This document shows, piece by piece, positions 50,907 to 64,000 of a DNA stretch of 64,000 bases (the stretch's first letter is position 1; every line of letters begins with the position of its first letter). The position numbers and the translations under genes are program-made. Where the stretch lies: the NCBI GenBank assembly GCA_001603955.1, contig LVAA01000035.1, positions 1-64,000 on the forward strand, written 5' to 3'. The notes under the pieces are model-generated. The model saw only the letters and a program-made list of their open reading frames with translations, had not been told where the DNA came from and searched no databases. This stretch comes from Syntrophobacterales bacterium Delta_02. GTDB lineage: Bacteria > Desulfobacterota > Syntrophorhabdia > Syntrophorhabdales > Syntrophorhabdaceae.

Positions 50907-50947
50907 CTGTCGACACGGAACGAAAAATACGACATTACCGTCGACAG
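50907..50947. other. candidate left end of Mu-like element (or terminal dyad)
   Basis: CTGTCGACacggaacgaaaaatacgacattaccGTCGACAG inverted repeat beginning TG at 50908, with three CGACA motifs, at the switch from chromosome to low-GC DNA; TTACGACATC reappears inverted at 51061-51070. Confidence 0.35.
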
Positions 50948-51128
50948 GGTGTGTAGGGGGGTGTGATAACTAAGTACCGAATAATGTTATAAGTCACTTC
51001 TGACTAATCTTACGGTGGGTAAAATTAAGGGGATTTTGGGGGTGTTTTCAAGAGAGGTTTGATGTCGTAATAAGAAACAGCTCTACCATTGCTTTTGGAT
51101 TGGGACTAGTTTCCTGTGGGTCTGACAG

Positions 51129-52328
51129 TTATCCAAGCACTAATTTTATAACCCGATCCCTATGCCAATCTTTGTATTCGGGCATTCGAAAAGCTCTTGG
51201 ACGTACCCATCTTTCCAAGGCTTGTTCGGCTACTTCAGTTACGTGACATACATCCTGATAGTCGGGTGTTTCTTGTGCTCCACGTAGTATCTCCAAAGTA
51301 TTGCTGGCCATTTCGCATATGAACACTTCTCTACGAACACCATGCCGTAAGAAGTCTCTGTTAATTCCGATCAGTTCCATCGCCGCTCTTATGCTTCTGA
51401 GCCTCCAATTCGGTCCATTTCCATAACGGTTATTGGAATAATAGTTGTGTCCTTTGAATTTCAAGTATTCGCGAATCTTTGCGAACAAATCATCTGGTAT
51501 GTGAAAATGACCATATCCTGACGTGTAACCCACAGACCGGAAGTAATGCCTTCCGTCTAATCTGAGCCGGTTATAAACAGACGATCTGCCAAGAGCAGAT
51601 GTGGTAGTCACCACTAGAAGGTATGGTTGTTTTGCTTTCCCCGATATGATGCCGACCGTGTTTCCGTATTTCTCGGAAAACATGCTGATAATCTCTCTCG
51701 TTCTAACCAAGCAAGCAATCAACTTGCCGCCGAGCAACATGTTGTATGGGGGGAGTGCCCCCATAACATACGCATCCATAACATCAACAAGACGCTCTTT
51801 GCGGTCAGACCCGCTCCAGCCTATCGCTTCATCTCGAGCCTTCAGGTTAAAAACAGGATCACCCAGCGCAATCACGCCTATCAGTTTGTGGTTGTGATCA
51901 TCCCACACAAGGAAACGCATTCTGCGACCAAAACCTTCGGAAACAGGGATGCTCCAAGTAAGTGTTGCAAAGCGGAAAAGTCTGCTCTCAATCGTATTGG
52001 TTTGAACCATTTGAAGCCGAGGTTTTATGCGGTTTGGTTTGATATCCTTACCTGAGGCAAAATATCTCAATAACTCTGAAGCATTCTTTTGGATAAACAC
52101 CAGCGATTGTAGTTGTTTATTCTGGCGTTGAAACGAATGTCGTAGACGGATGGTATTCTTGCTAAGTTCCATCAGGCCGCAGGTGCCCTTTCCCGTTCGC
52201 CTGAGTTCTAGCAGATCAAAATGTGCGTCCAAATCCTGTTTGATCTGTGCCTCGAGACTCTCCAATTCAGCTTGATGAATATCGGGCTTAGATAGTGTGC
52301 GTTCTGCCTTACCCAGAATTACTGCCAC
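51129..52328 (-). CDS. DUF4338 / Druantia DruA-like protein
   Basis: MRFLVWDDHNHKLIGVIALGDPVFNLKARDEAIGWSG and VDVMDAYVMGALPPYNMLLGGKLIACLVRT are recognisable DUF4338 core motifs; GTG start overlaps upstream stop (TAGTG). Confidence 0.78.
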   Translation of the reverse strand: MAVILGKAERTLSKPDIHQAELESLEAQIKQDLDAHFDLLELRRTGKGTCGLMELSKNTIRLRHSFQRQNKQLQSLVFIQKNASELLRYFASGKDIKPNRIKPRLQMVQTNTIESRLFRFATLTWSIPVSEGFGRRMRFLVWDDHNHKLIGVIALGDPVFNLKARDEAIGWSGSDRKERLVDVMDAYVMGALPPYNMLLGGKLIACLVRTREIISMFSEKYGNTVGIISGKAKQPYLLVVTTTSALGRSSVYNRLRLDGRHYFRSVGYTSGYGHFHIPDDLFAKIREYLKFKGHNYYSNNRYGNGPNWRLRSIRAAMELIGINRDFLRHGVRREVFICEMASNTLEILRGAQETPDYQDVCHVTEVAEQALERWVRPRAFRMPEYKDWHRDRVIKLVLG

Positions 52329-53398
52329 TACGCTAATCCTTGGGGTGCTGTTAGTCTAATGACCCACGATGCTCCGATGCCTTCGCTGAAGGATTCAGTA
52401 AAATACTTTGCCGGGACGCTGGTCACGATTGTCAGAGACTTAATTAACGAAGAGACTATCCAGCAAGCTATGGTCTGCAGTTTTGATCCCAATATGGCCA
52501 AATGGACATCATACTTCTGTAGCAGTGCTGGATCAGAGAATAAGAGGAGGACAATTTGCTCTACAGACTTCCTATAGTCGAATGTACTCATATCTCTGAC
52601 ACTCCAATCTTTAATCAAAGACTCGTTGATGTCTATTAACGCTTGATAACGCCATGCATTCCGAGGCAAACGTGGCCTACCCGCTATGAAAAGCATATCG
52701 GAGTAACTCTCTTGTTTAAGGATCGCTGCAAGGCGGGCTGACTTAAAGGGCAGGAAACCGACTAACGCCCTTCCATGGCCTGGAGAATCATAGCCCTCAT
52801 GTCCTTCTACCAATTCAACCCGATGCTCATAACCAAACAGCCATGGTGCCTTATCGACTAGGTCTATGATAGAATTTGTGCCTATCTGCTCCCTTAGCGT
52901 CTTCCAGGCCTCCTCTTTCGGCCAATATTCTTGCGGTTCGCTGTATCCCAAGTACACCTTATGATTCGATTTGCTCGCCAAATCCAATGCCATAAAAAGA
53001 CTTCGGTTTGATAATCCTGTGATATCTATAAGGACTTCTTCTGTGTCGACCATGGCCAATGCTTGCTTGAGCCAGACGCCATCATTAGAGTTTGGGACAA
53101 CAGACCACTTGCCCGGTGCCGCCCCCTCCGCAAGGGTTTCAAACTCACGGCGATATTTCACGTTCCAGTCATCACCTTGAAGGCTGGGGGAATACCTACT
53201 GATTATCACCGTTGTAGGCTTCGACCGCGAATTAGTGATCTTCTGCAGTATCGCTAGAGATCGCTCTTCGAAACCTTCCGTTACTATGAGACTGATACGC
53301 TCCGTAAGGCTGTTGAGATACGCGTCAAAGTCTTGTTCAGGCTTTGCTTTCAGCAAATATTCTGCACACCTGGTTTCTTCTAAGCTAAGCAACCCCAT
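52328..53398 (-). CDS. Rossmann-like hypothetical protein of the putative defence operon
   Basis: RISLIVTEGFEERSLAILQKI..EVLIDITGLSNRSLFMALDLASKSNHKVYLGY; overlaps neighbours on both sides. Confidence 0.65.
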   Translation of the reverse strand: MGLLSLEETRCAEYLLKAKPEQDFDAYLNSLTERISLIVTEGFEERSLAILQKITNSRSKPTTVIISRYSPSLQGDDWNVKYRREFETLAEGAAPGKWSVVPNSNDGVWLKQALAMVDTEEVLIDITGLSNRSLFMALDLASKSNHKVYLGYSEPQEYWPKEEAWKTLREQIGTNSIIDLVDKAPWLFGYEHRVELVEGHEGYDSPGHGRALVGFLPFKSARLAAILKQESYSDMLFIAGRPRLPRNAWRYQALIDINESLIKDWSVRDMSTFDYRKSVEQIVLLLFSDPALLQKYDVHLAILGSKLQTIACWIVSSLIKSLTIVTSVPAKYFTESFSEGIGASWVIRLTAPQGLA

Positions 53399-55922
53399 TT
53401 TGCTCCTCAAATAATGGAATATTGCCCTTGGGTTTCTTCCAAATCTTTTTCGGGTTTAGCAGCCACTTTTCGTATTCACTGATGTTCAGATCAACGCAGC
53501 CATCTCTTGAAGGGCTGAAAGGGAAACAGGGGGCATAGAGTCTTCGAAAGTATAACTTGCGCGTTGGCAGTCCCCCTTTGCTCTTACCACTACCTCCTGG
53601 TATAAGAACACTGTGTTTGAAAAGTTCATCCTGCATTCTTCTTGCCTCTTCGGACAACTCCTCAGTTCCTTCAATTTCAATCCTTAGCCGTTCATCAGGG
53701 TCGTTCTTATTGTGGGAATTCAGAAGGTATTGCTTTAAAAGGTTTCCCAGACCCTCTGCAAACTCATAAAGTTTGGGGCCATACACCGCTGTCGACCGAA
53801 GCATGGCTAGTTGGCGAAAGGCGAACTGTTTTGTAGTCTCATCTTGGCTCTTAGCCGGAATACTAGCATTACTTCCCCATCTTCCGGCAACAAGGGAATG
53901 GAGAAGCTCAATGATGTAGCTCACATCACCCGAACAGAGACGACAAAGAAGACGAAAACCGTAAAAGCGGGCATCCCCGGGCCGACTCTGCTTACATATA
54001 TAAGTACCAAAGTTCCCATCGTGCGCATGTTCATCGAGCATCGCTCTAAGCTCCCCGATACTCCCCAACCCAGTCTCTTCGAATCTCACCTGCAGAATAA
54101 GCTCAAAGAACTCAAGGCACCTTCTTTCTTCTGCTCTAAAGTACACTTCGCCCAAATTAACCTTTGTAAGCTCCCGTCCTTCCTTATATTTTCTGCCGAG
54201 TGTATCACTAAGGACGGGGCCATCCCCTTCACTACTGAGTTTGATTCTCACCTCACTAGACAGTCTAAAAATGACCGGGTTGTAAGCGCTAATCGCGAAA
54301 GGGGGAAGAAGAGTGGGACTATAATCATCAAGAAGAAACCACACTTCTTTCGATCGAACCCAATTGAGTGACCTGACCGCCCGAGCCAAATGGTACAATA
54401 CATTGTCCGCGGACATATCGGTTGGTTTGTACGCTGACGGGTCGGGTAAGTTCGACAATTCGACAACCCGCCTCTCGACAGCTTCCAGCAAGTTGCTGTA
54501 TTGAATGCCGTTACGACCATTACCGTCTAGACATAGAAGTGATGCAAAAACAGGAACAAGTTGTCCGAGTTCCTCCTGAGATATGGCCGCTAAACGTTCA
54601 AGGTGAAGCCAGGATAACGTTCTAAGTATCTCATACATGAAATGAATATTAATGAATTCACGGCAAAAATCCTCAGCGAGATTCCTATTAGAATCCTCAA
54701 GCTTCTTGTAAGGGGAACGAATAAAGGGGGTGCGAAGCTCTCCCAAGCGAACCAGGAATCCTACATACTTTGAGGAATTCAATCGGTTTTCGACTTCTTC
54801 TCGGGAGTTTTCTCCTTTTTCCGGGCGAGCCTGGCTTGATATAGAAAGATATCGCAAAAGCATCGTCTTCCCGCAACCCCTAGGACCCGTTATCAAAACC
54901 GGTTCTGATTTCTCAATTCTGTCTTTCCACCTGAGCGTATCTCGAAACAAAAGGCCTATGTCTTGGGGGGCGAGATTTATTGCATTGGTGTTCGACAGGG
55001 GTTCTGTTAGAGAGACTCGCGATTGTGTCTTCATTTCCTCGAAGGAAGGAAATTCATTTCCAGTAATGGCTTCACTCACCGTGTTACGAAGTTCCGTAAC
55101 AACTTGTGCTGGATCGAGGTTTCTTCTGGAAACGTTTGGGTCTGAAAGGCGCTGCCCGAGCTGTCGCAGATTCCTCACAAACGATCGGTCTATCGGACCA
55201 AGCCTAGTGAAATTGGACTTTTCAAAACAAGCAGCTAGGCTGAGTATGTGCTTGCTAAGGTAGACGTAGTCGGAACGTACCTCATGTTCGGTTTCACCCG
55301 GCAACACTGTCACGGCCGATCCAAAATCTATCAGTTTTGCCTCGTAATGCTCTGGAAGATTTTCATCCGGAGCCACACTCCGAACGAGGATGTTGTCGTC
55401 GTGTAAGTCATGGTGCCAAAGCTGTCTCGTATGCATTCGAGCCAAACCACTACTAATCCCAGCCAGGATGTCTACTACATCAATCTTGGTTGGCCTAAAG
55501 TCTTCCTTCTCAATAATCTTGCCCAACGGTATTGCGTTCTCAACATACTCGAAAACAAGACACAGGACCTCAACTTCCTTTTCGAACAGCTTTAGGCGCG
55601 TGTTAATGGCACGAACGAATCGAGCAATGTTCCTATGAGGGGAACAAGCCACTAGAGCCTTTACTTCATGATCTGTCACCTCGGCCTTCGCCAATCGGTG
55701 CGTTGGTATGAGCTTGAGCGCGAACTCTTGGTAATCATCACGAACCTTCACGGTCCAGCCATAAAAACCTCGTCCTATAATCTCAACGGGTTCGTAATCG
55801 TCAATTCTCGCTTCCAGAAGCTGGGGTCCTATATCGATGGGGCTGCCACAATTCGGACATGAACCGTCATACATGTCGGATTTGCCGGAACAAAAACAAC
55901 AACCGTACTCTTTTGTGGACAT
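53385..55922 (-). CDS. Zn-ribbon / Ser-Thr protein kinase / P-loop (ORC-CDC6-like) ATPase fusion
   Basis: CCFCSGKSDMYDGSCPNCG; kinase VEIIGRGFYGWTVKV, LWHHDLHDDNILV, KLIDFGSAV; Walker A VLITGPRGCGKTMLLRYLS; Walker B-like VWFLLDDYS. ORF open to 55955. Confidence 0.82.
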   Translation of the reverse strand: MSTKEYGCCFCSGKSDMYDGSCPNCGSPIDIGPQLLEARIDDYEPVEIIGRGFYGWTVKVRDDYQEFALKLIPTHRLAKAEVTDHEVKALVACSPHRNIARFVRAINTRLKLFEKEVEVLCLVFEYVENAIPLGKIIEKEDFRPTKIDVVDILAGISSGLARMHTRQLWHHDLHDDNILVRSVAPDENLPEHYEAKLIDFGSAVTVLPGETEHEVRSDYVYLSKHILSLAACFEKSNFTRLGPIDRSFVRNLRQLGQRLSDPNVSRRNLDPAQVVTELRNTVSEAITGNEFPSFEEMKTQSRVSLTEPLSNTNAINLAPQDIGLLFRDTLRWKDRIEKSEPVLITGPRGCGKTMLLRYLSISSQARPEKGENSREEVENRLNSSKYVGFLVRLGELRTPFIRSPYKKLEDSNRNLAEDFCREFINIHFMYEILRTLSWLHLERLAAISQEELGQLVPVFASLLCLDGNGRNGIQYSNLLEAVERRVVELSNLPDPSAYKPTDMSADNVLYHLARAVRSLNWVRSKEVWFLLDDYSPTLLPPFAISAYNPVIFRLSSEVRIKLSSEGDGPVLSDTLGRKYKEGRELTKVNLGEVYFRAEERRCLEFFELILQVRFEETGLGSIGELRAMLDEHAHDGNFGTYICKQSRPGDARFYGFRLLCRLCSGDVSYIIELLHSLVAGRWGSNASIPAKSQDETTKQFAFRQLAMLRSTAVYGPKLYEFAEGLGNLLKQYLLNSHNKNDPDERLRIEIEGTEELSEEARRMQDELFKHSVLIPGGSGKSKGGLPTRKLYFRRLYAPCFPFSPSRDGCVDLNISEYEKWLLNPKKIWKKPKGNIPLFEEQNGVA

Positions 55923-55926
55923 TTCT

Positions 55927-56511
55927 CTAACTCCCCCCGCTATTCGTCCTGCCACTAGCTTGGAAAATCTCTTTTGATATTGCTTCGAGTCTATCTAAAA
56001 CGTGGCTGACGGAGAACCCCGAGACAAAGGCCAGAGCGTAGAGCAAGTATCTTCCTCTGTCGGAGATCTCCTCTGTCGGCAGCTTTGACAACACTTGAAA
56101 CCCTATGAAGGTGAGGGTATAGGCGAGAGCACCCAAAACAGCACCCAACAAAGGGCGCGTCAGATAATAAAACAACCAGCCCAGACTCCAGTCAGTCGTT
56201 GAACCATTCAACCCCGAGGTTTTGGCAGCGCTTTCTGTTATCAATACCTTGTAATATTTTCGGCTTGATGCCATCGCCGCTCCTAGCATTCCGAACGCCC
56301 CGCAGAGAAAATGCGTTCTCAGCAGTTCTCTAGTGGCGAGAATCGGGACAGCATTGAGATGTATCACAACAAGTATGGTTAAAGCGAGAAAGATGTACAT
56401 CACGAGCGCCACGCCCACTACATAGCAACCAATGGGGTAACTTGCTTTCATGCTCTGCGTCTCTTCCTTTCTGGTCGTCTCAGAACCGTCTGTGTATTGG
56501 GTCTCTGACAC
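55927..56511 (-). CDS. multi-pass membrane protein, first gene of putative operon
   Basis: Several hydrophobic segments (CYVVGVALVMYIFLALTILVVIHL; LLGAVLGALAYTLTFIGFQVL); start 56511 or 56448. Confidence 0.6.
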   Translation of the reverse strand: MSETQYTDGSETTRKEETQSMKASYPIGCYVVGVALVMYIFLALTILVVIHLNAVPILATRELLRTHFLCGAFGMLGAAMASSRKYYKVLITESAAKTSGLNGSTTDWSLGWLFYYLTRPLLGAVLGALAYTLTFIGFQVLSKLPTEEISDRGRYLLYALAFVSGFSVSHVLDRLEAISKEIFQASGRTNSGGS

Positions 56512-56561
56512 AGTTCATCGTTCCATCGTTCATTCTCTGCAGATCTCCGGCAACGGCCAGC

Positions 56562-56575
56562 AAGATTCGAATCTT
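56562..56575. promoter_or_regulatory. perfect 14-bp palindrome AAGATTCGAATCTT upstream of the operon
   Basis: Perfect dyad in the leader between repressor gene and membrane-protein gene. Confidence 0.4.
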
Positions 56576-56636
56576 CGCCAGTATAGAAGTCTCATGATTG
56601 GTGCAGAAACCTTGCGAGTTGACTGCCCATATGGCC

Positions 56637-57317
56637 TTATCTCTCCAATTCCCTTGCGAACCATATAACCTTACCATTGATCTTTGCTTGATCAGCTTGA
56701 ACTTCAAAAGCCTCGTACATCTTATTATCGCTGATGATTCTTACTCGGTCCCCGATAGGCTGAATTCTCTTAATCATAATCACATCGTCCAAAGCAATAG
56801 CGTAGACACCGCCCTGGGGTTCTAAATAGTTCCTTCCGCGATCGATGAGAACAAGGTCACCGTTCAGGAGTGTCGGTTGCATGCTATCCCCAGAAACCTT
56901 TATGAGAACCATATCTTTCGCGCTGCCCTTCCGGGCGATCCATTCCTTCCGGAAGGCCACCCTCATTTCTATGGAATTCTCGGGAGCAAATCCGGTTCCG
57001 GCACTGATTCTACCGCTCACCTGGGGAACATACGTGAAACCTGGTTCTCCTGCGTGTTCAAGGTGACTCAAATCCTTTTTCCGCGATTTCTCTTCCGTTC
57101 CGGCATGCTTCGTGGCTACTTGGCCTGTAAGCAACCAATTCAGCGACAAACCTTCTTCTTCACATAATGAAACAATAAGATCGTAAGGAACAGTGGACCG
57201 TTTTCGCCAATTTGAAACAGTAGTGGGCTTAACATTAAGCAGCTTGGCAAGGGCCGTGTCATTCTTAAGGCCTTTAAACTCAATAATCTTGTCTAAAATC
57301 TCATTAATAGTGCGCAT
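56637..57317 (-). CDS. phage repressor, XRE HTH plus S24/LexA-like peptidase domain
   Basis: N-terminal HTH TALAKLLNVKPTTVSNWRKRSTVP; S24 KVSGDSMQPTLLNGDLVLIDRG. Confidence 0.9.
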   Translation of the reverse strand: MRTINEILDKIIEFKGLKNDTALAKLLNVKPTTVSNWRKRSTVPYDLIVSLCEEEGLSLNWLLTGQVATKHAGTEEKSRKKDLSHLEHAGEPGFTYVPQVSGRISAGTGFAPENSIEMRVAFRKEWIARKGSAKDMVLIKVSGDSMQPTLLNGDLVLIDRGRNYLEPQGGVYAIALDDVIMIKRIQPIGDRVRIISDNKMYEAFEVQADQAKINGKVIWFARELER

Positions 57318-57325
57318 AATGACTT

Positions 57326-57340
57326 TCCACAGTATGTGGA
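57326..57340. promoter_or_regulatory. candidate repressor operator TCCACA-gta-TGTGGA
   Basis: Perfect inverted repeat between repressor and divergent HTH gene; TTTGTGGATAT half-site again at 57366-57376. Confidence 0.6.
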
Positions 57341-57348
57341 TTATTCTC

Positions 57349-57379
57349 TTGACACATTATTTCAGTTTGTGGATATAAT
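57349..57379 (+). promoter_or_regulatory. early promoter of prophage
   Basis: TTGACA at 57349, TATAAT at 57374 (19-bp spacer), overlapping TGTGGAT half-site. Confidence 0.6.
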
Positions 57380-57385
57380 CTAACC

Positions 57386-57607
57386 ATGGCAACAACAGAG
57401 ACCAAAAAAAAGATCCAGAAACTCATGATCGACAGGGACGTGAAGGGCGCCGCCATCGCCCGGAAGGTGGGCTGCACGCGCCAGAACGTGTACCACGTCA
57501 TAACCGGTCGGCAGGTGTCGCCCCACATACGCCAGGCGATCGCCGAGTCCCTGGGCGTCCAGGTCTCGGACCTCTGGCCGGCCGAAGCATCCGAGGAGGC
57601 CGCATAG
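57386..57607 (+). CDS. Cro/Ner-like HTH DNA-binding protein
   Basis: LMIDRDVKGAAIARKVGCTRQNVYHVITGRQVSPHIRQAIAESLGV. Confidence 0.82.
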   Translation: MATTETKKKIQKLMIDRDVKGAAIARKVGCTRQNVYHVITGRQVSPHIRQAIAESLGVQVSDLWPAEASEEAA

Positions 57608-57676
57608 GTGACGGGCATGAGGATACTCCCCATAGAGAAAGTCCTGCAGATAGGCATTGAAAGCGGCATTTTCCCG

Positions 57677-58174
57677 TCATTCATACTGGGTCACGAGTTC
57701 CCAAAAGGTCCGGTCCACGATGTCATACTCGCGGAACCGGGTGCACAGGTAGATGACAAGATCGGCAGGGACGAGTAAGTGATAAAGGACCGTATCAGCA
57801 TTGAAGAACGCCAGCCTGAAGGAGGAGGTTACCTTCCTCTGCCGCATGAGCCGTCTGTGGGCGTTCGCCAGCTCGACCTGGTGGTACCCCTCCCTGTTCT
57901 CGATCTCATCGATCCCGATACATATCGCGGCACGTATGAATGCCTCGAAGCCCTCGTAGGGCAGCCTGTCGAAGATCGCCACGGGCTTGTACCCCTTCGT
58001 GAGCACATATCCCCTGAGGTACGGCACAGCCGCCTTGTTCGCGTTCGCGGCGGGCGTGTTCGCAAAACCGAGCTTCTTTCCCTTGGCTCCCGCAGGCCGG
58101 CGTCTTATCTCCTCGAGATCCTTCTCAACGCTGAACACCGGCTCATACCTGAGCGCTGTGGCCGTATTTTCCAT
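57677..58174 (-). CDS. hypothetical protein, antisense to prophage early operon
   Basis: 165-aa minus-strand ORF with no competing plus-strand gene. Confidence 0.55.
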   Translation of the reverse strand: MENTATALRYEPVFSVEKDLEEIRRRPAGAKGKKLGFANTPAANANKAAVPYLRGYVLTKGYKPVAIFDRLPYEGFEAFIRAAICIGIDEIENREGYHQVELANAHRRLMRQRKVTSSFRLAFFNADTVLYHLLVPADLVIYLCTRFREYDIVDRTFWELVTQYE

Positions 58175-58238
58175 ACCTTCCCTGCATTTCCTGATTTCAA
58201 AGATAGTTTGATTCTAACAAACAGAACAGGGGTTTGCA

Positions 58239-58721
58239 ATGTCAAAAGTTAAGCGGAAAATTGACAGCCGCCAGGGGGGACTCTTCGAGTACCTGAAACC
58301 TGAAAGACCCCCCGCTCCCGGGAGCCTCAACGTCAGCGCCCGGATCCGCCAGGCCGTCTCCTCGGCCATCAAGAAGTCCGGCATGGACCGCGTCGACATC
58401 TGCTCGGCGATCTACAAGCTCACCGGAATCGAGGTGCCGAAGAGCACCCTCGACAACTGGTCGGCGGAGAGCCGGGACCTGGCGGGCGACATCATAGACA
58501 ACAACGGCAACAAGAGATGGGGCATGTCCGTCGACGTCCTCGCCGCCTTCTGTCAGGTCTGCGGCGACTACGAGGTGCTCTTCATCCTCGTCGAGGCCTG
58601 CAACTACAAGGCCCTGAAGGGCAAGGACGTGGTCCGGGCCCGGGCAGGGCTTCTCAAGGAAGAGATCACCAAGAAACAACAGGAGCTCAAGGAGCTGGAG
58701 CGGGCGCTCCTCGAACACTAA
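58239..58721 (+). CDS. phage-associated hypothetical protein (possible DNA-binding)
   Basis: 160 aa, KSGMDRVDICSAIYKLTGIEVPKSTLDNWSAE HTH-like. Confidence 0.7.
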   Translation: MSKVKRKIDSRQGGLFEYLKPERPPAPGSLNVSARIRQAVSSAIKKSGMDRVDICSAIYKLTGIEVPKSTLDNWSAESRDLAGDIIDNNGNKRWGMSVDVLAAFCQVCGDYEVLFILVEACNYKALKGKDVVRARAGLLKEEITKKQQELKELERALLEH

Positions 58722-58735
58722 AGAAGGAGGGACAT

Positions 58736-59035
58736 GTGGCAACGACCTACAAACGCATTGAGGCGGTGAGAAAGACCGGCGAGATTCTGAAGTTCCTCGC
58801 CGGCCAGAAGGAACCGGTTCCGTGCCCGAAGATAGCCCAGGCGGTGAACCTGCCGACGGGCACGGCCATGTGCCACCTCGCGACCCTGGAGGACCTGGGG
58901 TTCGTATCGACCGTCGGCGACCGGTTCCGCCTCGGCATGGGCCTCGCCCTCTTCTGGGCGCGGGTCAAGAGCACCCTTGAGGCGGAGAAGACCCGCATAG
59001 AGCAGAACATCAAGTCCCTGGACATGGAGGAATGA
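58736..59035 (+). CDS. IclR-type winged-helix protein
   Basis: AVRKTGEILKFLAGQKEPVPCPKIAQAVNLPTGTAMCHLATLEDLGFV; GTG start. Confidence 0.75.
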   Translation: MATTYKRIEAVRKTGEILKFLAGQKEPVPCPKIAQAVNLPTGTAMCHLATLEDLGFVSTVGDRFRLGMGLALFWARVKSTLEAEKTRIEQNIKSLDMEE

Positions 59036-59036
59036 T

Positions 59037-59969
59037 ATGGCGCGCAAACCGAAGGTAACAGACGAACAGGTCGAGGCCTCGAAGGAGATCTACCGGATCG
59101 CCCGGGAAGAGGCGGACATCGAGATGACGAAGCTGCGAGGGGAAATGGCAGCCAAGCTTCCCCAGTACGAGGCCATGGGTATTCTCAGGAAGATCCAGCA
59201 CGACAGGGCCTACAACGACCTTATCGAAGCCCTGGTTCTCTTCAGGATTAAGGATAGCAAAGCATACAAGGACGGCGGGTTGAACTGGGAAGATTTCTGC
59301 AGCGCCGCCGGGTACGACCGCAGAAGAGCGGACGAGATAATCAGTGATGTGCGGCCGGTATTCCAGACTTTTTCGGCGGATTTCGCCGGTTTTCTAGGAA
59401 TCGGTTTCAATAAAATCAGATACTTGGGCAAATCGGTTTCGGCGGAATCCGCCAGTTTTGAGGATGGCGCCCTCGTTATCGAAGGCGAGAAAATCCCCCT
59501 TACCCCCGAGCACAGGGATGAGATTGAGGCGGCGATCGACAAGCTCCAGGAGGAACTGAAGCAACAGAAGGAAGACTCCGCCGCGCAGAAGAAGGCCTTC
59601 GAGCGCGTCCAGGCCGACACCCACAAGACGGTGACGAAGCTCGAGAAGGAGCTCGCCCGTCGCAAAGGGTTCCTCGACAACAAAGAACTGAGCGACGAGG
59701 AGGCCGCCTTCGCGAGTAAGATCGCCGCGCTTAAGACGGCCTTCGACGGGTACCTCCTTACCATCGACCCCGAGAACATCGAGGAGCTTGAGCTGAAGAG
59801 GGAGCCTTCGGTGCGCATGCGGGCGGAGTACATCACGGCCCTCTCGTACATGAAGATGCAGATCCTCAAGATGTACGACATCGCCGAGGAGATGTTCGGG
59901 GACTGCATCATGATCCCCGAGAAGGCCCCGGACTTCGGCATGCCGGGACAAGAAAAAGGGTCCGAGTGA
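59037..59969 (+). CDS. phage-associated coiled-coil hypothetical protein
   Basis: 310 aa upstream of and overlapping transposase gene. Confidence 0.7.
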   Translation: MARKPKVTDEQVEASKEIYRIAREEADIEMTKLRGEMAAKLPQYEAMGILRKIQHDRAYNDLIEALVLFRIKDSKAYKDGGLNWEDFCSAAGYDRRRADEIISDVRPVFQTFSADFAGFLGIGFNKIRYLGKSVSAESASFEDGALVIEGEKIPLTPEHRDEIEAAIDKLQEELKQQKEDSAAQKKAFERVQADTHKTVTKLEKELARRKGFLDNKELSDEEAAFASKIAALKTAFDGYLLTIDPENIEELELKREPSVRMRAEYITALSYMKMQILKMYDIAEEMFGDCIMIPEKAPDFGMPGQEKGSE

Positions 59970-61690
59970 GGCAGGCGGACATGTGGCAGGAAGAACTGGC
60001 GGCTGAACTGAGTAGCGCAGGCGACGCATCGGCACGATCGAAGGTGGTCGAGGAGTACGCCCAAAGGACGGGCATGAGCTCCCAACACCTTTACCGCGTC
60101 GCTCGCCGGTTCGGGTACGCCTCCGGCCGCCGCAGCCGCGCCGACAAGGGCGTCCGCAAGTCCGGCCTCACCGATCAGCAGGTCGACCTTGTCGCCGGGC
60201 TCATCCACAAGACGGCCCGGGAGGTGAAGGGCCCTATCATGCCTGTCGAGCGCTCTCTGGAGATCGCCGTCGACTCGGGATACATCGACGCCGACCAGGT
60301 GACGCCCGCCGGCATGCGGCATATCCTGCGCACGGCCCGGCTCAACGACGCGAGCCTCAAGGTCGCCGATCCCCACGGCCGCATGCGTTCCCTCCACCCC
60401 AACCACTGCCACGTCTTCGACGTCTCCGTCTGCATCCAGTATTACTTGAAGGGCAAGAAGGGCCTGTGCATCATGGACGAGCGGGACTTCTACAAGAACA
60501 AGCTCCACAACTACGCCAAGATCAAGGCACGGCTCTTGAGATATGTCGTCGTCGACCACTTCTCGGGGATGTTCTACTTTCGGTACTTCGAGGCGGCCGG
60601 GGAGACACAGAACAACCTCTATTCCTTCCTCATCGAGGCCTGGCGGGGCCGGGACGACGAGAGGTATCCCTTCCGCGGGGTTCCCTTCCACCTCCTCATG
60701 GACAACGGAGCGGCGAACTCCGCCCGGGCCGTCGTCTCCTTCCTTAACCGCCTCGAGATCAACATCCCCCCGGGGAGACCTTACAACTCTGAGCGCCAGG
60801 GCGCCGTGGAGGTCATGCACAACATCATCGAGGAGTGGTTCGAGTCGGGTTTAAGACTCCAGCCCGCCTACGATATCGACACCCTCAACGTCTGGGCATA
60901 CGATTTCTGTGTCAAGCATAACGCGGGCCGGGTGCATACCCGCCACGGGATGACCCGCACGCAGTGCTGGCTCATGATAAAGGAAAACGAGCTCCGGGAG
61001 CTCCCCGGCAGGGAGATCCTCTCGGAGCTTTACTCGTATACGGATGAGCAGTTCACCCGCCTCGTCAACAGGGATTACGCCATATCATACAAGGGGGAGA
61101 GCTACAACTTAAAGCACGTCGAGGGCATTGTGCCCGGCGTCTCGACGGTGCGGATCATCATAAAACCCTTCACCCCCGAGACGATCGGCGTCGCCTTCCG
61201 CGACGTGGTCTACGAGGTGAAACCCATAAAAACCCTGCCGGCCGAACTCGGGGCGTTCCCCGTCACCGCGGCGGTGATCGGCGAGGAGTATAAGGCACAG
61301 CCCGACAGCATCGTCCAGAAGGCGAAGAAGCGTATCGACAACATGGCTTACGGGGAAGACCCCAAGAAAGACCAGGCCCCCTTTGCAGGCCTCAAGGTCT
61401 TCGGCCACCAGGCGGACAAGATCGATCTCACGCTGATCCCCCGCAAGGGAACACCCATGGAGATCGACCGGGCCATCCTGGAGAAAAGGATATCCTTCAC
61501 GGAGTTCTTAAAGCGCCTTACAGGCCGGGTGGGGGCTATATCGAAGGAGACAAACCAGGCCCTCCGGGGTGCATTCGGGGATTCCATCGAGATATCGAAG
61601 GCGGACGAGGTCATCGCCCAGATCGAGGCGGAGGGTAACTGGAACACGGACACCGGACACAACGGCGGCATGCAGTCCGCCAATCAATAA
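59966..61690 (+). CDS. MuA-type DDE transposase/integrase
   Basis: HVFDVSVCIQYY (D), FHLLMDNGAANSARAVVSFLNRL (D), RPYNSERQGAVEVMHNIIEEWFE (E); C-terminal Mu-type beta domain. Confidence 0.88.
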   Translation: MRQADMWQEELAAELSSAGDASARSKVVEEYAQRTGMSSQHLYRVARRFGYASGRRSRADKGVRKSGLTDQQVDLVAGLIHKTAREVKGPIMPVERSLEIAVDSGYIDADQVTPAGMRHILRTARLNDASLKVADPHGRMRSLHPNHCHVFDVSVCIQYYLKGKKGLCIMDERDFYKNKLHNYAKIKARLLRYVVVDHFSGMFYFRYFEAAGETQNNLYSFLIEAWRGRDDERYPFRGVPFHLLMDNGAANSARAVVSFLNRLEINIPPGRPYNSERQGAVEVMHNIIEEWFESGLRLQPAYDIDTLNVWAYDFCVKHNAGRVHTRHGMTRTQCWLMIKENELRELPGREILSELYSYTDEQFTRLVNRDYAISYKGESYNLKHVEGIVPGVSTVRIIIKPFTPETIGVAFRDVVYEVKPIKTLPAELGAFPVTAAVIGEEYKAQPDSIVQKAKKRIDNMAYGEDPKKDQAPFAGLKVFGHQADKIDLTLIPRKGTPMEIDRAILEKRISFTEFLKRLTGRVGAISKETNQALRGAFGDSIEISKADEVIAQIEAEGNWNTDTGHNGGMQSANQ

Positions 61691-61707
61691 TCAAGGGAGG
61701 TGAGGAT

Positions 61708-62946
61708 GTGGGACGAAAAGCGACGGCATACGGATTAACGATAAACCCTATCATCCTGAAGCAACTGCTTGTCGATTGCGACATCAACCAGGGAGCCCTC
61801 GGAGAGGTGACAGGCCTTGCCCGGACAACCATCAACATCGTGGTCAACAGGGGATACATCCCCCTCGAGCACCCGGAGTTCAAGTCCCTGGTCGAGGAGT
61901 TCATCGGCGGCAACGTGCGCGCCCGGAAATGGCTGGCGCACCACTGCCTGAAGGTCGAGAACATCTGGGACCCCTTGGGGCGCGTGCTTAAGAACTCTCA
62001 GCCCGTCGGCAGCGTAGCGAGAATGATGGCGACGAGGCACAGGCGGGAAGTCAGCGGCGATTCGGAACATGTTCGAGTAATACGGGAGGTGGAAGTGATA
62101 ACGGAAGACACAAAGAGGCATTTCAGGCTTTTCAAGAACCCCTTCATCAACGACGTCCAGGAGGAGAAGGACATCTACATGTCCTCCGAGCACCACTACA
62201 TCGAGGCGGCGATGATCGACGCGGCCAAGCACGCGGGCTTCCTGGCGGTGGTGGGGGAGGTACAGAGCGGCAAATCCATCATGCGCCGCAAGGTGGTCCT
62301 CACCCTGCAGCGCGAGGGAAACGTCCGGGTCATCTTCCCCCAGATCGTCGACAAGGACCGGGTGACGGCGGGGTCCCTGTGCGACGCGATCATCCACGAC
62401 ATAAGCAGTGAGAAGCCGAAGGTGAAGCTCGAGGAGAAGTCCCGCCAGGTCCTGCGGCTCCTTCTCGCCCGCCACAAGCAGGGCTCCCGGCACGTCATCA
62501 TCATCGAAGAGGCACACGATCTGGGCTTTAAGGTCTTGAAGCTCCTCAAGCGGTTCTACGAGTTCGAGGACGGCTACACCAAGCTCCTCGGCATCATCCT
62601 TATCGGCCAGCCGGAGCTCAAGGACAAGCTCGACGAGGGTGATCACCCGGACATGCGCGAGGTCATCCGAAGGATCCAGATCGCGGAGATCCGGGGTCTC
62701 AACGGCAACGTGAAAGACTACCTCATGCTCAAGTTCAAACGGGTCGGCGCAAAGGCGGAGGACGTCTTCACCGATGAGGCAATCGCCTCACTGTCGAGGC
62801 GGCTCACCGACAGGGACGGAAGGACGGGCAAGACGATAAGCCACGCCTACCCGGGCCTCGTCAACAACTACGCGGCGAAGGCGATGAACCTCGCCTGCCA
62901 GATGGGCTGCGAGAAGGTGACGGAAGAGGTGGTGATGGAGATATGA
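61708..62946 (+). CDS. MuB-type AAA ATPase, transposition target selector
   Basis: N-terminal HTH; Walker A GEVQSGKSIMRRKVV; Walker B HVIIIEEAHDL; directly follows transposase. Confidence 0.88.
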   Translation: MGRKATAYGLTINPIILKQLLVDCDINQGALGEVTGLARTTINIVVNRGYIPLEHPEFKSLVEEFIGGNVRARKWLAHHCLKVENIWDPLGRVLKNSQPVGSVARMMATRHRREVSGDSEHVRVIREVEVITEDTKRHFRLFKNPFINDVQEEKDIYMSSEHHYIEAAMIDAAKHAGFLAVVGEVQSGKSIMRRKVVLTLQREGNVRVIFPQIVDKDRVTAGSLCDAIIHDISSEKPKVKLEEKSRQVLRLLLARHKQGSRHVIIIEEAHDLGFKVLKLLKRFYEFEDGYTKLLGIILIGQPELKDKLDEGDHPDMREVIRRIQIAEIRGLNGNVKDYLMLKFKRVGAKAEDVFTDEAIASLSRRLTDRDGRTGKTISHAYPGLVNNYAAKAMNLACQMGCEKVTEEVVMEI

Positions 62947-63155
62947 GGACACGGCCGAGGACGCAATTCCACAAGCAGCAGGCGAGTACCGGCGGGCATT
63001 CCGGGAACACAGGGAGCCCGACCGGAAAACCGTCCAGATACCCCAATGGCGACGTCTGGTGCCAGCATCACGGGGACCGCATCGATCACGCGGTCTGCAT
63101 AACGAGAGCAGTGCGGCAGCCCGACAAATGCCGGGGCTGTCCGCTCAACCTCTAA
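62943..63155 (+). CDS. small Cys-containing phage protein
   Basis: 70 aa, ATGA overlap with upstream gene; WCQHHGD..CITRAV..CRGCPL. Confidence 0.55.
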   Translation: MRTRPRTQFHKQQASTGGHSGNTGSPTGKPSRYPNGDVWCQHHGDRIDHAVCITRAVRQPDKCRGCPLNL

Positions 63156-63168
63156 GGAGGCAGGAATC

Positions 63169-63387
63169 ATGGGGAAACTTTTGAGTCTCATTATCGGTGA
63201 AGAGGAGAGGCCCGTACAGGCGATTCCCCTCGAACATGCGGTTCTCTGCATGAACTGCGAGACCGTGTTCGACATGGCGGAGCGCATCTGCCCTGTCTGC
63301 TGCAGCGAGACCTTCCTCAACATAGGGGTCGCCCTGGGTGATGAGGAGACGAAGTCACGGATCCGGCGACAGGCGGTGACGGCATGA
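63169..63387 (+). CDS. small zinc-ribbon phage protein
   Basis: CMNCETVFDMAERICPVCC. Confidence 0.65.
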   Translation: MGKLLSLIIGEEERPVQAIPLEHAVLCMNCETVFDMAERICPVCCSETFLNIGVALGDEETKSRIRRQAVTA

Positions 63388-63560
63388 AGGCGGCGGTCGA
63401 GGTATACAGGGACATGTGCATCATCAAGATCCTCGATGACACCGGCGCCGTCACGGACCGGTTCGAGACAAATGAGATCTTCGTACAGAACTACATACAC
63501 GAGAGAGGAGAGGCCGATCCGGAGGGAACCCTCCCGATCGTGCCTAAGACAGTGAACTAA
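63384..63560 (+). CDS. 58-aa phage hypothetical protein
   Basis: MKAAVEVYRDMCIIKILDDTGAVTDRFETNEIFVQNYIHERGEADPEGTLPIVPKTVN; ATGA overlap; below ORF-track cutoff. Confidence 0.55.
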   Translation: MKAAVEVYRDMCIIKILDDTGAVTDRFETNEIFVQNYIHERGEADPEGTLPIVPKTVN

Positions 63561-63571
63561 GGAGGATATGT

Positions 63572-64000
63572 ATGCCAACACTGGGAGAGATTGAAACATT
63601 GACGAAGTCCTGGGCCGACGCCCAGGACAGCCTCGTGGAGACCATCCAGGGCCTGGAGGACGCGGTAGAATCGCTTAGGCGCCAGTACCTTCCCGCACTG
63701 AAGAGGCAGGTGGCCATCGCCGCCGAAAGGAAGGCACAGCTCAGGGCCGCAATCGAGGACGCGAGGACGCTCTTCACACGCCCCAAGACCCTCGTTATCC
63801 ACGGAGTGAAGGTGGGCTACGAGAAGGGGAAGGAGGAAGTCATCATCGAAGACGAGGACCTCACCGTCGTGCTCCTTGAGAAACACTTCCCGGAACAGAA
63901 GGACCTCTACATCAAGACAAAGAAGACCGTCAAGAAGCGGGCCGTCAAGGACCTCTCCGAGCTTGAACTGAAATCCATCGCGGTGACGGTCACGGATCCC
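63572..64000 (+). CDS. gam: host-nuclease inhibitor Gam-like protein, truncated by window end
   Basis: MPTLGEIETLTKSWADAQDSLVETIQGLEDAVESLRRQYLPALKRQVAIAAERKAQLRAAIED..FTRPKTLVIHGVKVGYEKGKE; Mu Gam-like. Confidence 0.8.
   Translation, partial: MPTLGEIETLTKSWADAQDSLVETIQGLEDAVESLRRQYLPALKRQVAIAAERKAQLRAAIEDARTLFTRPKTLVIHGVKVGYEKGKEEVIIEDEDLTVVLLEKHFPEQKDLYIKTKKTVKKRAVKDLSELELKSIAVTVTDP

What the first reader, a model, noticed from the sequence alone, without database searches (positions are those of the whole stretch)
51129..56511. Candidate undescribed defence operon: membrane protein + kinase/ATPase fusion + Rossmann-like protein + DruA-like DUF4338 protein
Four same-strand genes are packed with overlaps or near-zero gaps (TAGTG between the last two; ~14-nt overlap of the Rossmann gene with the kinase-ATPase; ~5-nt gap to the membrane gene), implying one coupled operon. 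DUF4338 is the DruA family, known from the Druantia anti-phage system, but none of the large Druantia DruE helicase is visible. Instead the DruA-like protein is paired with a fused kinase/ATPase and a Rossmann-like protein. I do not recognise this composition as a named system. Function is inference.
Basis: partly seen in the sequence, partly recalled or inferred. Interest (0 to 1): 0.88.

Follow-up and report, generated by a model that had tools for sequence, protein, structure and literature searches.

The report
Prophage-borne split kinase-ATPase/CARF operon with DruA
A Mu-like virus dormant in this bacterium carries, at its left end, a four-gene operon that looks like an antiviral defence system: a known kinase-ATPase-nucleotide-sensor module, here split into two genes and combined with a Druantia-type DruA protein and a membrane protein, a combination I also found in an unrelated Bacteroidales genome.

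Summary
In detail: four same-strand genes with the stated overlaps. The "kinase/ATPase fusion" and the "Rossmann-like protein" are the two halves of one known architecture, zinc ribbon-kinase-AAA(ORC/CDC6-like)-CARF (described as a fused protein in 2014; PADLOC PDLC01925), here split. The last gene is a true DruA (PF14236), closest to Druantia I DruA, but there is no DruE, so this is not Druantia. The operon is cargo of a 41.4-kb Mu-like prophage (50952-92394; 6-bp target duplication; site uninterrupted in relatives), lying between its left end and its repressor gene; an AIPR gene sits at the right end. The same four genes, in another order, occur in a Bacteroidales genome; a Planctomycetota relative (54-55% identical) has only the core pair. 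Relatives outside this clade usually lie beside a DNA methyltransferase (47 of 65 loci); this clade does not. DruA is related, through a short transposon-linked DUF4338 form, to phage Mu Mom, a DNA-modifying enzyme. Best reading: a nucleotide-gated kinase/ATPase defence module, with DruA probably in the methyltransferase's place. Defence, the ligand and the kinase target are inferred, untested. New variant of a known kind.

The parts
55927..56511 (-). Small membrane protein (194 aa; 174 aa if started at the ATG at 56451), about 3 predicted hydrophobic segments; first gene of the operon
   Evidence: hydropathy count; no Pfam, PADLOC, NCBIfam or PHROG family at significance; homologue in the Bacteroidales operon L024:11110-11652 (30% identity over 155 columns, single-pair E 3e-14)
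53385..55955 (-). Zinc ribbon (C19-x2-C22...C33-x2-C36), Ser/Thr-type protein kinase with intact catalytic residues (K81, H181-x-D183, N188, D210-F-G) and ORC/CDC6-like AAA+ ATPase (Walker A GPRGCGKT with an arginine in the P-loop; Walker B LLDD); likely start ATG at 55922
   Evidence: searches (PF00069, PF24389; PDLC01925 positions 5-815), invariant residues
52328..53410 (-). CARF protein (360 aa, likely start ATG 53398): two Rossmann-like domains in tandem; the detached C-terminal third of the fused family
   Evidence: PDLC01925 positions 892-1185, E 3e-20; other CARF6 models; model pLDDT 91; Foldseek hits to Can1 6sce (prob 1.00), Csm6 and Can2
51129..52328 (-). DruA (PF14236/DUF4338), 399 aa, overlaps the stop of the CARF gene (TAGTG); last gene
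   Evidence: E 1e-82; PDLC00002, 566 bits; 49-50% identical to DruA of plasmid Druantia I operons
56637..57317 (-). Prophage CI-type repressor (HTH + S24 peptidase), directly upstream of the operon on the same strand
57386..57607 (+). Cro/Ner-like HTH regulator, divergent from the repressor
59966..61690 (+). MuA-like DDE transposase of the carrier prophage
   Evidence: phrog_310, E 1.5e-54
61708..62946 (+). MuB-like transposition ATPase
   Evidence: phrog_296; AAA_22
50952..64000 (.). Part of the Mu-like prophage inside the window. Full element: contig C239 50952-92394 (41,443 bp), TGTAG...CTACA ends, 6-bp target duplication AGGGTG (50946-50951 and 92395-92400)
   Evidence: empty site in same-genus genomes G010, G004, G005

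Best explanation
This is a defence-type operon carried as cargo by a Mu-like transposable prophage, built on the zinc ribbon-kinase-AAA/CARF signalling module. Most likely working: (1) the ORC/CDC6-like AAA ATPase with its zinc ribbon senses invading nucleic acid or its replication; (2) the tandem CARF protein, bound to the ATPase-kinase, reads a nucleotide signal or phage-derived nucleotide and gates the complex; (3) the activated kinase phosphorylates a partner, the candidates being the membrane protein (membrane damage or exclusion) and host proteins, which stops the infection; (4) DruA, a relative of the Mom DNA-modification family, sits where the sister systems usually have a DNA methyltransferase and probably supplies the nucleic-acid recognition or marking function. 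Shown here: composition, intact catalytic motifs, CARF fold by prediction, split versus fused homologues, methyltransferase partners in most sister systems, DruA-Mom relatedness through an intermediate family, and prophage location. Inferred: steps 1-4 and defence itself. The confidence given is for 'prophage-borne defence operon using this signalling module'; the detailed order of steps I put at about 0.25.
For: One PADLOC model, CARF_STK_AAA, covers both middle proteins end to end; the three domains occur as one gene (48 loci with an ORF of 1100 aa or more), two genes (window; Bradyrhizobium type; L023; L024) or three genes (L014 kinase/ATPase/CARF), which ties them functionally. Same four genes adjacent in Bacteroidales L024 in another order. 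Kinase, Walker and zinc-ribbon residues invariant. CARF model pLDDT 91 with Can1/Csm6/Can2 hits. Sister systems: C5 methyltransferase in 36 of 48 fused loci (with Vsr in 11, GHKL in 15, Z1 in 8, several also with a DUF4420 nuclease) and an N4/N6 methyltransferase upstream in 9 of 9 split-b loci, and a methyltransferase-like gene upstream in L210 and L211. DruA homologues also accompany Druantia I DruBCDE and NurA-HerA pairs. Inside a prophage proven by ends, target duplication and empty site; low G+C (46-47% against about 60%); AIPR/Abi-alpha-like gene at the other end.
Against: No experiment shows protection for any member of the family. L023 has the core pair without DruA or the membrane gene, on its contig or (DruA) in its genome, so the full four-gene set may not be obligatory. 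Only two four-gene loci were found. Window DruA groups with Druantia I DruA, not with the L024 DruA, so DruA was swapped or acquired twice. No Cas10 over the family cut-off in the host genome, so the CARF ligand has no known source. Mom's HY and D are not conserved at the aligned sites in DruA, so catalysis is doubtful. 18 of 65 loci outside this clade show no clustered methyltransferase within the stretch examined.
Confidence: 0.62

Rival explanations
1. The functional unit is only the two-gene core (kinase-ATPase plus CARF); DruA and the membrane protein are separate passengers that happen to be co-transcribed.
For: L023, the closest relative (54-55% identity), has only the pair and its genome has no PF14236 match. 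DruA of the window and of L024 are not sister sequences.
Against: The membrane protein and a DruA are adjacent to the pair again in Bacteroidales L024, in a different order, with zero to short gaps; gene overlaps in the window indicate coupled expression. DruA-family genes matched in 57 of 395 genomes of the host phylum sample, so adjacency to this pair by chance is unlikely.
Confidence: 0.2
2. A prophage maintenance or superinfection-control module rather than a general defence system: the kinase acts on the prophage's own repressor or on host proteins to tune lysogeny.
For: The operon lies directly downstream of the CI-type repressor gene on the same strand, a lysogenic-conversion position; kinases are known prophage cargo (phrog_2361 match).
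Against: Homologues lie in plasmids and bacterial chromosomes beside restriction-modification genes.
Confidence: 0.12
3. A degenerate or novel Druantia subtype with an unseen DruE elsewhere.
For: DruA is 49-50% identical to Druantia I DruA and nested with it in the tree.
Against: No DruB, DruC, DruD or DruE in the neighbourhood; a DruE query gave nothing in the host genome at E<=1e-5; DruA homologues occur in other cores (NurA-HerA).
Confidence: 0.04

Closest known systems
ZnR-STK-AAA-CARF family (Makarova et al. 2014, PMC4012209; PADLOC CARF6 CARF_STK_AAA, PDLC01925)
   Same: Same domains in the same order over two adjacent genes, same P-loop arginine, intact kinase and AAA residues
   Different: Split into two genes; partners are DruA and a membrane protein instead of the C5 methyltransferase, Vsr, GHKL, Z1 and nucleoside-phosphorylase-like genes seen with fused members
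Druantia type I
   Same: DruA 49-50% identical to plasmid Druantia I DruA
   Different: No DruB, C, D or E; no helicase
Restriction-modification neighbourhoods with MORC/paraMORC ATPases (Iyer et al. 2008, PMC2292703)
   Same: Fused relatives of the module sit among C5 methyltransferases, Vsr nucleases and GHKL ATPases of that kind
   Different: That paper's text does not mention a kinase domain or phosphorylase by the terms searched; the window itself has none of those partners
Type III CRISPR CARF effectors (Can1, Csm6, Can2)
   Same: CARF fold; tandem CARF in one chain as in Can1 (Foldseek prob 1.00, TMq 0.48)
   Different: No nuclease domain and no Cas10 over cut-off in the genome; output predicted to be a kinase/ATPase
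MADS (MAD6 kinase) and Pgl/BREX-2 (PglW)
   Same: Kinase plus ATPase in a methylation-linked defence setting
   Different: NCBIfam MAD6 score 40 against cut-off 460; no PglX, PglZ or other MAD components among the four genes
Phage Mu Mom
   Same: Transitive homology: transposon-type DUF4338 to Mom (prob 96.0, E 4e-9) and to DruA (prob 96.5, E 8e-10), with negative controls
   Different: Direct DruA-Mom comparison is not significant; Mom's HY and D positions are not kept in DruA

Membership tests
ZnR-STK-AAA-CARF (CARF6) family | Zinc ribbon, protein kinase, AAA with arginine in the P-loop, then CARF | tested here: met
   CARF is on a separate adjacent gene
ZnR-STK-AAA-CARF (CARF6) family | All domains in one polypeptide | tested here: not met
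   Split at 53385-53410; split forms also in L023, L024, L014, L078 and others. I therefore call it a split variant, not a standard member
ZnR-STK-AAA-CARF (CARF6) family | C-terminal wHTH after CARF (2014 description) | tested here: not met
   The AF2 model shows a second Rossmann-like alpha/beta domain, not a wHTH (secondary structure read by eye)
Druantia type I | DruE helicase with DruB, DruC and DruD | tested here: not met
   None in the operon; no DruE match in the genome (no positive control for that search)
Druantia type I | DruA (PF14236) | tested here: met
Mu-like transposable prophage (carrier) | MuA-like transposase, MuB-like ATPase, repressor/ner at left, virion genes, target duplication | tested here: met
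Type III CRISPR ancillary effector | Linked or in-genome Cas10 as source of cyclic oligoadenylate | tested here: inconclusive
   Only two sub-cut-off matches to PF22335; the prophage could meet Cas10 in other hosts
MADS | MAD6 kinase above curated cut-off | tested here: not met
   40 bits against 460
Mom / GNAT-like DNA modification enzymes (for DruA) | Significant profile similarity | tested here: inconclusive
   Direct: prob below 1%. Through transposon-type DUF4338: both links E about 1e-9, nulls E 0.03 or more
Mom / GNAT-like DNA modification enzymes (for DruA) | Conserved HY and D of Mom | tested here: not met
   Present in transposon-type DUF4338, replaced in window and Druantia DruA (alignments; read by eye)
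Antiphage defence system | Protection in an infection assay | not testable with these tools

The most novel reading that the evidence does not exclude
DruA is a nucleic-acid-modifying (or modified-base-reading) enzyme descended from the Mom lineage, and it stands in for the DNA methyltransferase in this CARF-gated kinase system, making a new class of restriction-modification-like immunity whose self-mark is not methylation and whose output is a kinase signal.
Probability: 0.15. Interest if true: 0.85.

Novelty: new variant of a known kind. Interest (0 to 1): 0.62.

Why it matters
It puts a catalogued kinase-ATPase-CARF architecture, for which I found no experimental study, into a small four-gene operon on a mobile phage, with catalytic residues intact, so it can be cloned and tested directly. 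The occurrence of one, two or three genes for the same three domains defines the core. DruA turns up with three unrelated cores (Druantia I, NurA-HerA, and this one) and is traceable to phage Mu Mom, which gives a concrete, testable hypothesis for the unknown role of DruA: action on nucleic acid, perhaps in the place of a methyltransferase.

Tried and rejected
AlphaFold2 of DruA with 15 sequences gave pLDDT 60.6 and no fold hit: discarded. Direct hhalign of DruA against Mom failed and a wider DruA-centred profile also failed; only the transposon-type profile worked, and a shared-sequence comparison in that call was circular and was replaced by independent ones. Close relatives of DruA and of the CARF protein in viral contigs by single-sequence scans: none. 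Phage records: no relative of the kinase-ATPase. PDB by sequence: nothing for CARF, only generic kinases for the kinase-ATPase. Druantia, MADS and BREX/Pgl membership considered and rejected. Promoter and terminator scans gave no more than shuffles. The 2020 CARF classification paper looked up by DOI is not held.

Full report
Observation. Pfam identifies DruA (PF14236, E 1e-82), a protein kinase (PF00069) and an ORC-CDC6-like ATPase (PF24389); the Rossmann protein and the membrane protein have no Pfam family.

Identity of the core. PADLOC's single model PDLC01925 (CARF6, CARF_STK_AAA, 1187 positions) matches the kinase-ATPase at 5-815 and the Rossmann protein at 892-1185. The pair is therefore a split form of the family that Makarova et al. 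[quoted passage not shown] The P-loop here is GPRGCGKT, with that arginine; zinc-ribbon cysteines, kinase lysine, HxD, N and DFG aspartate, and Walker A/B residues are invariant in alignments. The CARF protein is predicted with pLDDT 91 as two Rossmann-like domains in tandem and matches Can1, Csm6 and Can2 in the PDB. By prediction, no wHTH is present.

Relatives. One scan of 84,980 species genomes gave 62 loci. With plasmid and viral loci, 68 loci including the window were analysed. 48 have an ORF of at least 1100 aa (fused form). Nine form a second split clade ('b', Bradyrhizobium type; in L014 the kinase and ATPase are separate genes too). The window's clade ('a') holds the window, a Planctomycetota locus (L023, 54-55% identity) and a Bacteroidales locus (L024, 26-27%). 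L024 has DruA (E 1e-89), kinase-ATPase, CARF and a homologue of the membrane protein (30% identity) in the order DruA - kinase-ATPase - CARF - membrane; the window order is membrane - kinase-ATPase - CARF - DruA. Retention of the set with a changed order is the best evidence that the four genes work together. L023 has the pair only, and no PF14236 in its genome, so the pair is the core.

Partners of the sister clades. In the fused clade a C5 DNA methyltransferase is present in 36 of 48 loci and a roughly 400-aa protein with a weak pyrimidine-nucleoside-phosphorylase match in 32 (directly upstream in 30); Vsr, GHKL and Z1 genes recur, and several loci have a DUF4420 nuclease. In clade b an N4/N6 methyltransferase lies upstream in 9 of 9. 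Two further loci from a phylum search, L210 and L211, have a methyltransferase-like gene directly upstream too (identified by eye from the sequence). Overall 47 of the 65 non-a loci carry one of the two methyltransferase clusters; none of the three clade-a loci does. Hence the proposal, an inference, that DruA takes the methyltransferase's place.

DruA. The closest DruA proteins by plasmid search are in Druantia I operons with the large helicase; a tree puts the window DruA with them (98/98) and not with the L024 DruA, which is on a long branch. In the host phylum, other full-length DruA genes lie beside NurA-HerA pairs in most of the loci fetched, and shorter DUF4338 proteins occur alone or fused to Tn5-type transposases. 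A profile of these short forms matches phage Mu Mom proteins with probability 96.0, E 4.4e-9, and independently matches the window-plus-Druantia DruA profile with probability 96.5, E 7.7e-10; reversed, shuffled and unrelated profiles gave E of 0.03 or worse. Direct DruA-Mom comparison was not significant, and Mom's HY and D are not kept in DruA, so a Mom-like reaction is not claimed. That Mom has a GNAT-like fold and modifies adenine is from my own knowledge. I could not check whether Pfam already places DruA in the acetyltransferase clan; no held paper was found to name DUF4338 with Mom.

Location. The contig carries a complete-looking Mu-like prophage: repressor and ner, MuA and MuB, terminase, portal, sheath, tape measure, baseplate, a D12-class methyltransferase and, at the right end, an AIPR/Abi-alpha-like gene. 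The ends are 50952 and 92394 with 6-bp duplication AGGGTG and TGTAG...CTACA; a 13-14 bp repeat occurs inverted near both ends. The joined flanks align continuously with three same-genus genomes. The operon (46-47% G+C against about 60%) is thus prophage cargo between the left end and the repressor.

Mechanism. Most likely a nucleotide-gated kinase/ATPase defence module (see best explanation). Composition, motifs, fold prediction and mobility are shown; sensing, ligand, phosphorylation target and protection are inferred. The host phylum is that of a Desulfobacterales genome (G147 is given as 'same phylum'; its contig agrees with L034 in length and protein).

Caveats. Gene calls in the related loci are mechanical ORFs; neighbour clusters are single-linkage at E 1e-5. 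Only two four-gene loci are known. Genome searches sampled one genome per species. The DruE search had no positive control.

Noticed in passing
L007:6507-8228 (contig C239 90507-92228): AIPR / Abi-alpha-like gene, low G+C, at the right end of the same Mu-like prophage: a second defence-type cargo gene.
   Followed up: partly
L007:5312-6100 (C239 89312-90100): D12-class adenine DNA methyltransferase just left of the AIPR gene in the prophage.
   Followed up: partly
L240:1189-3474, L245:1165-3297: DUF4338 (DruA-type) domains fused N-terminally to Tn5-type transposase domains; multi-copy short DUF4338 genes in some genomes (G256, G363) suggest transposon association.
   Followed up: partly
L249, L250, L252, L253, L254, L255: Full-length DruA-family genes next to a NurA-like plus HerA-like pair, sometimes with an N4/N6 methyltransferase or a sacsin/NOV protein: possibly a further DruA-containing defence type.
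   Followed up: partly
L034:1429-2652, L030:7781-8986 and 30 other fused loci: A roughly 400-aa protein resembling pyrimidine nucleoside phosphorylase lies mostly directly upstream of the fused kinase-ATPase-CARF gene; role unexplained.
   Followed up: partly
L014:10118-11041, L078:10741-11664, L080: ThyX-type thymidylate synthase downstream of clade-b kinase-ATPase/CARF operons; a second link to thymidine metabolism.
   Followed up: no
L023:14028-15185: Caspase-domain (Peptidase_C14) gene close to the two-gene core in the Planctomycetota relative, on the opposite strand.
   Followed up: no
IMGVR_UViG_2751185576_000004 (L002): The IMG/VR prophage record starts at the end of the kinase-ATPase gene, so it leaves out the CARF and druA genes; the empty-site boundary shows they belong to the element.
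   Followed up: yes
L087-L166: Marine phages related to Pelagibacter phage Mosig carry a conserved DUF4338 protein of about 430 aa of unknown function.
   Followed up: no
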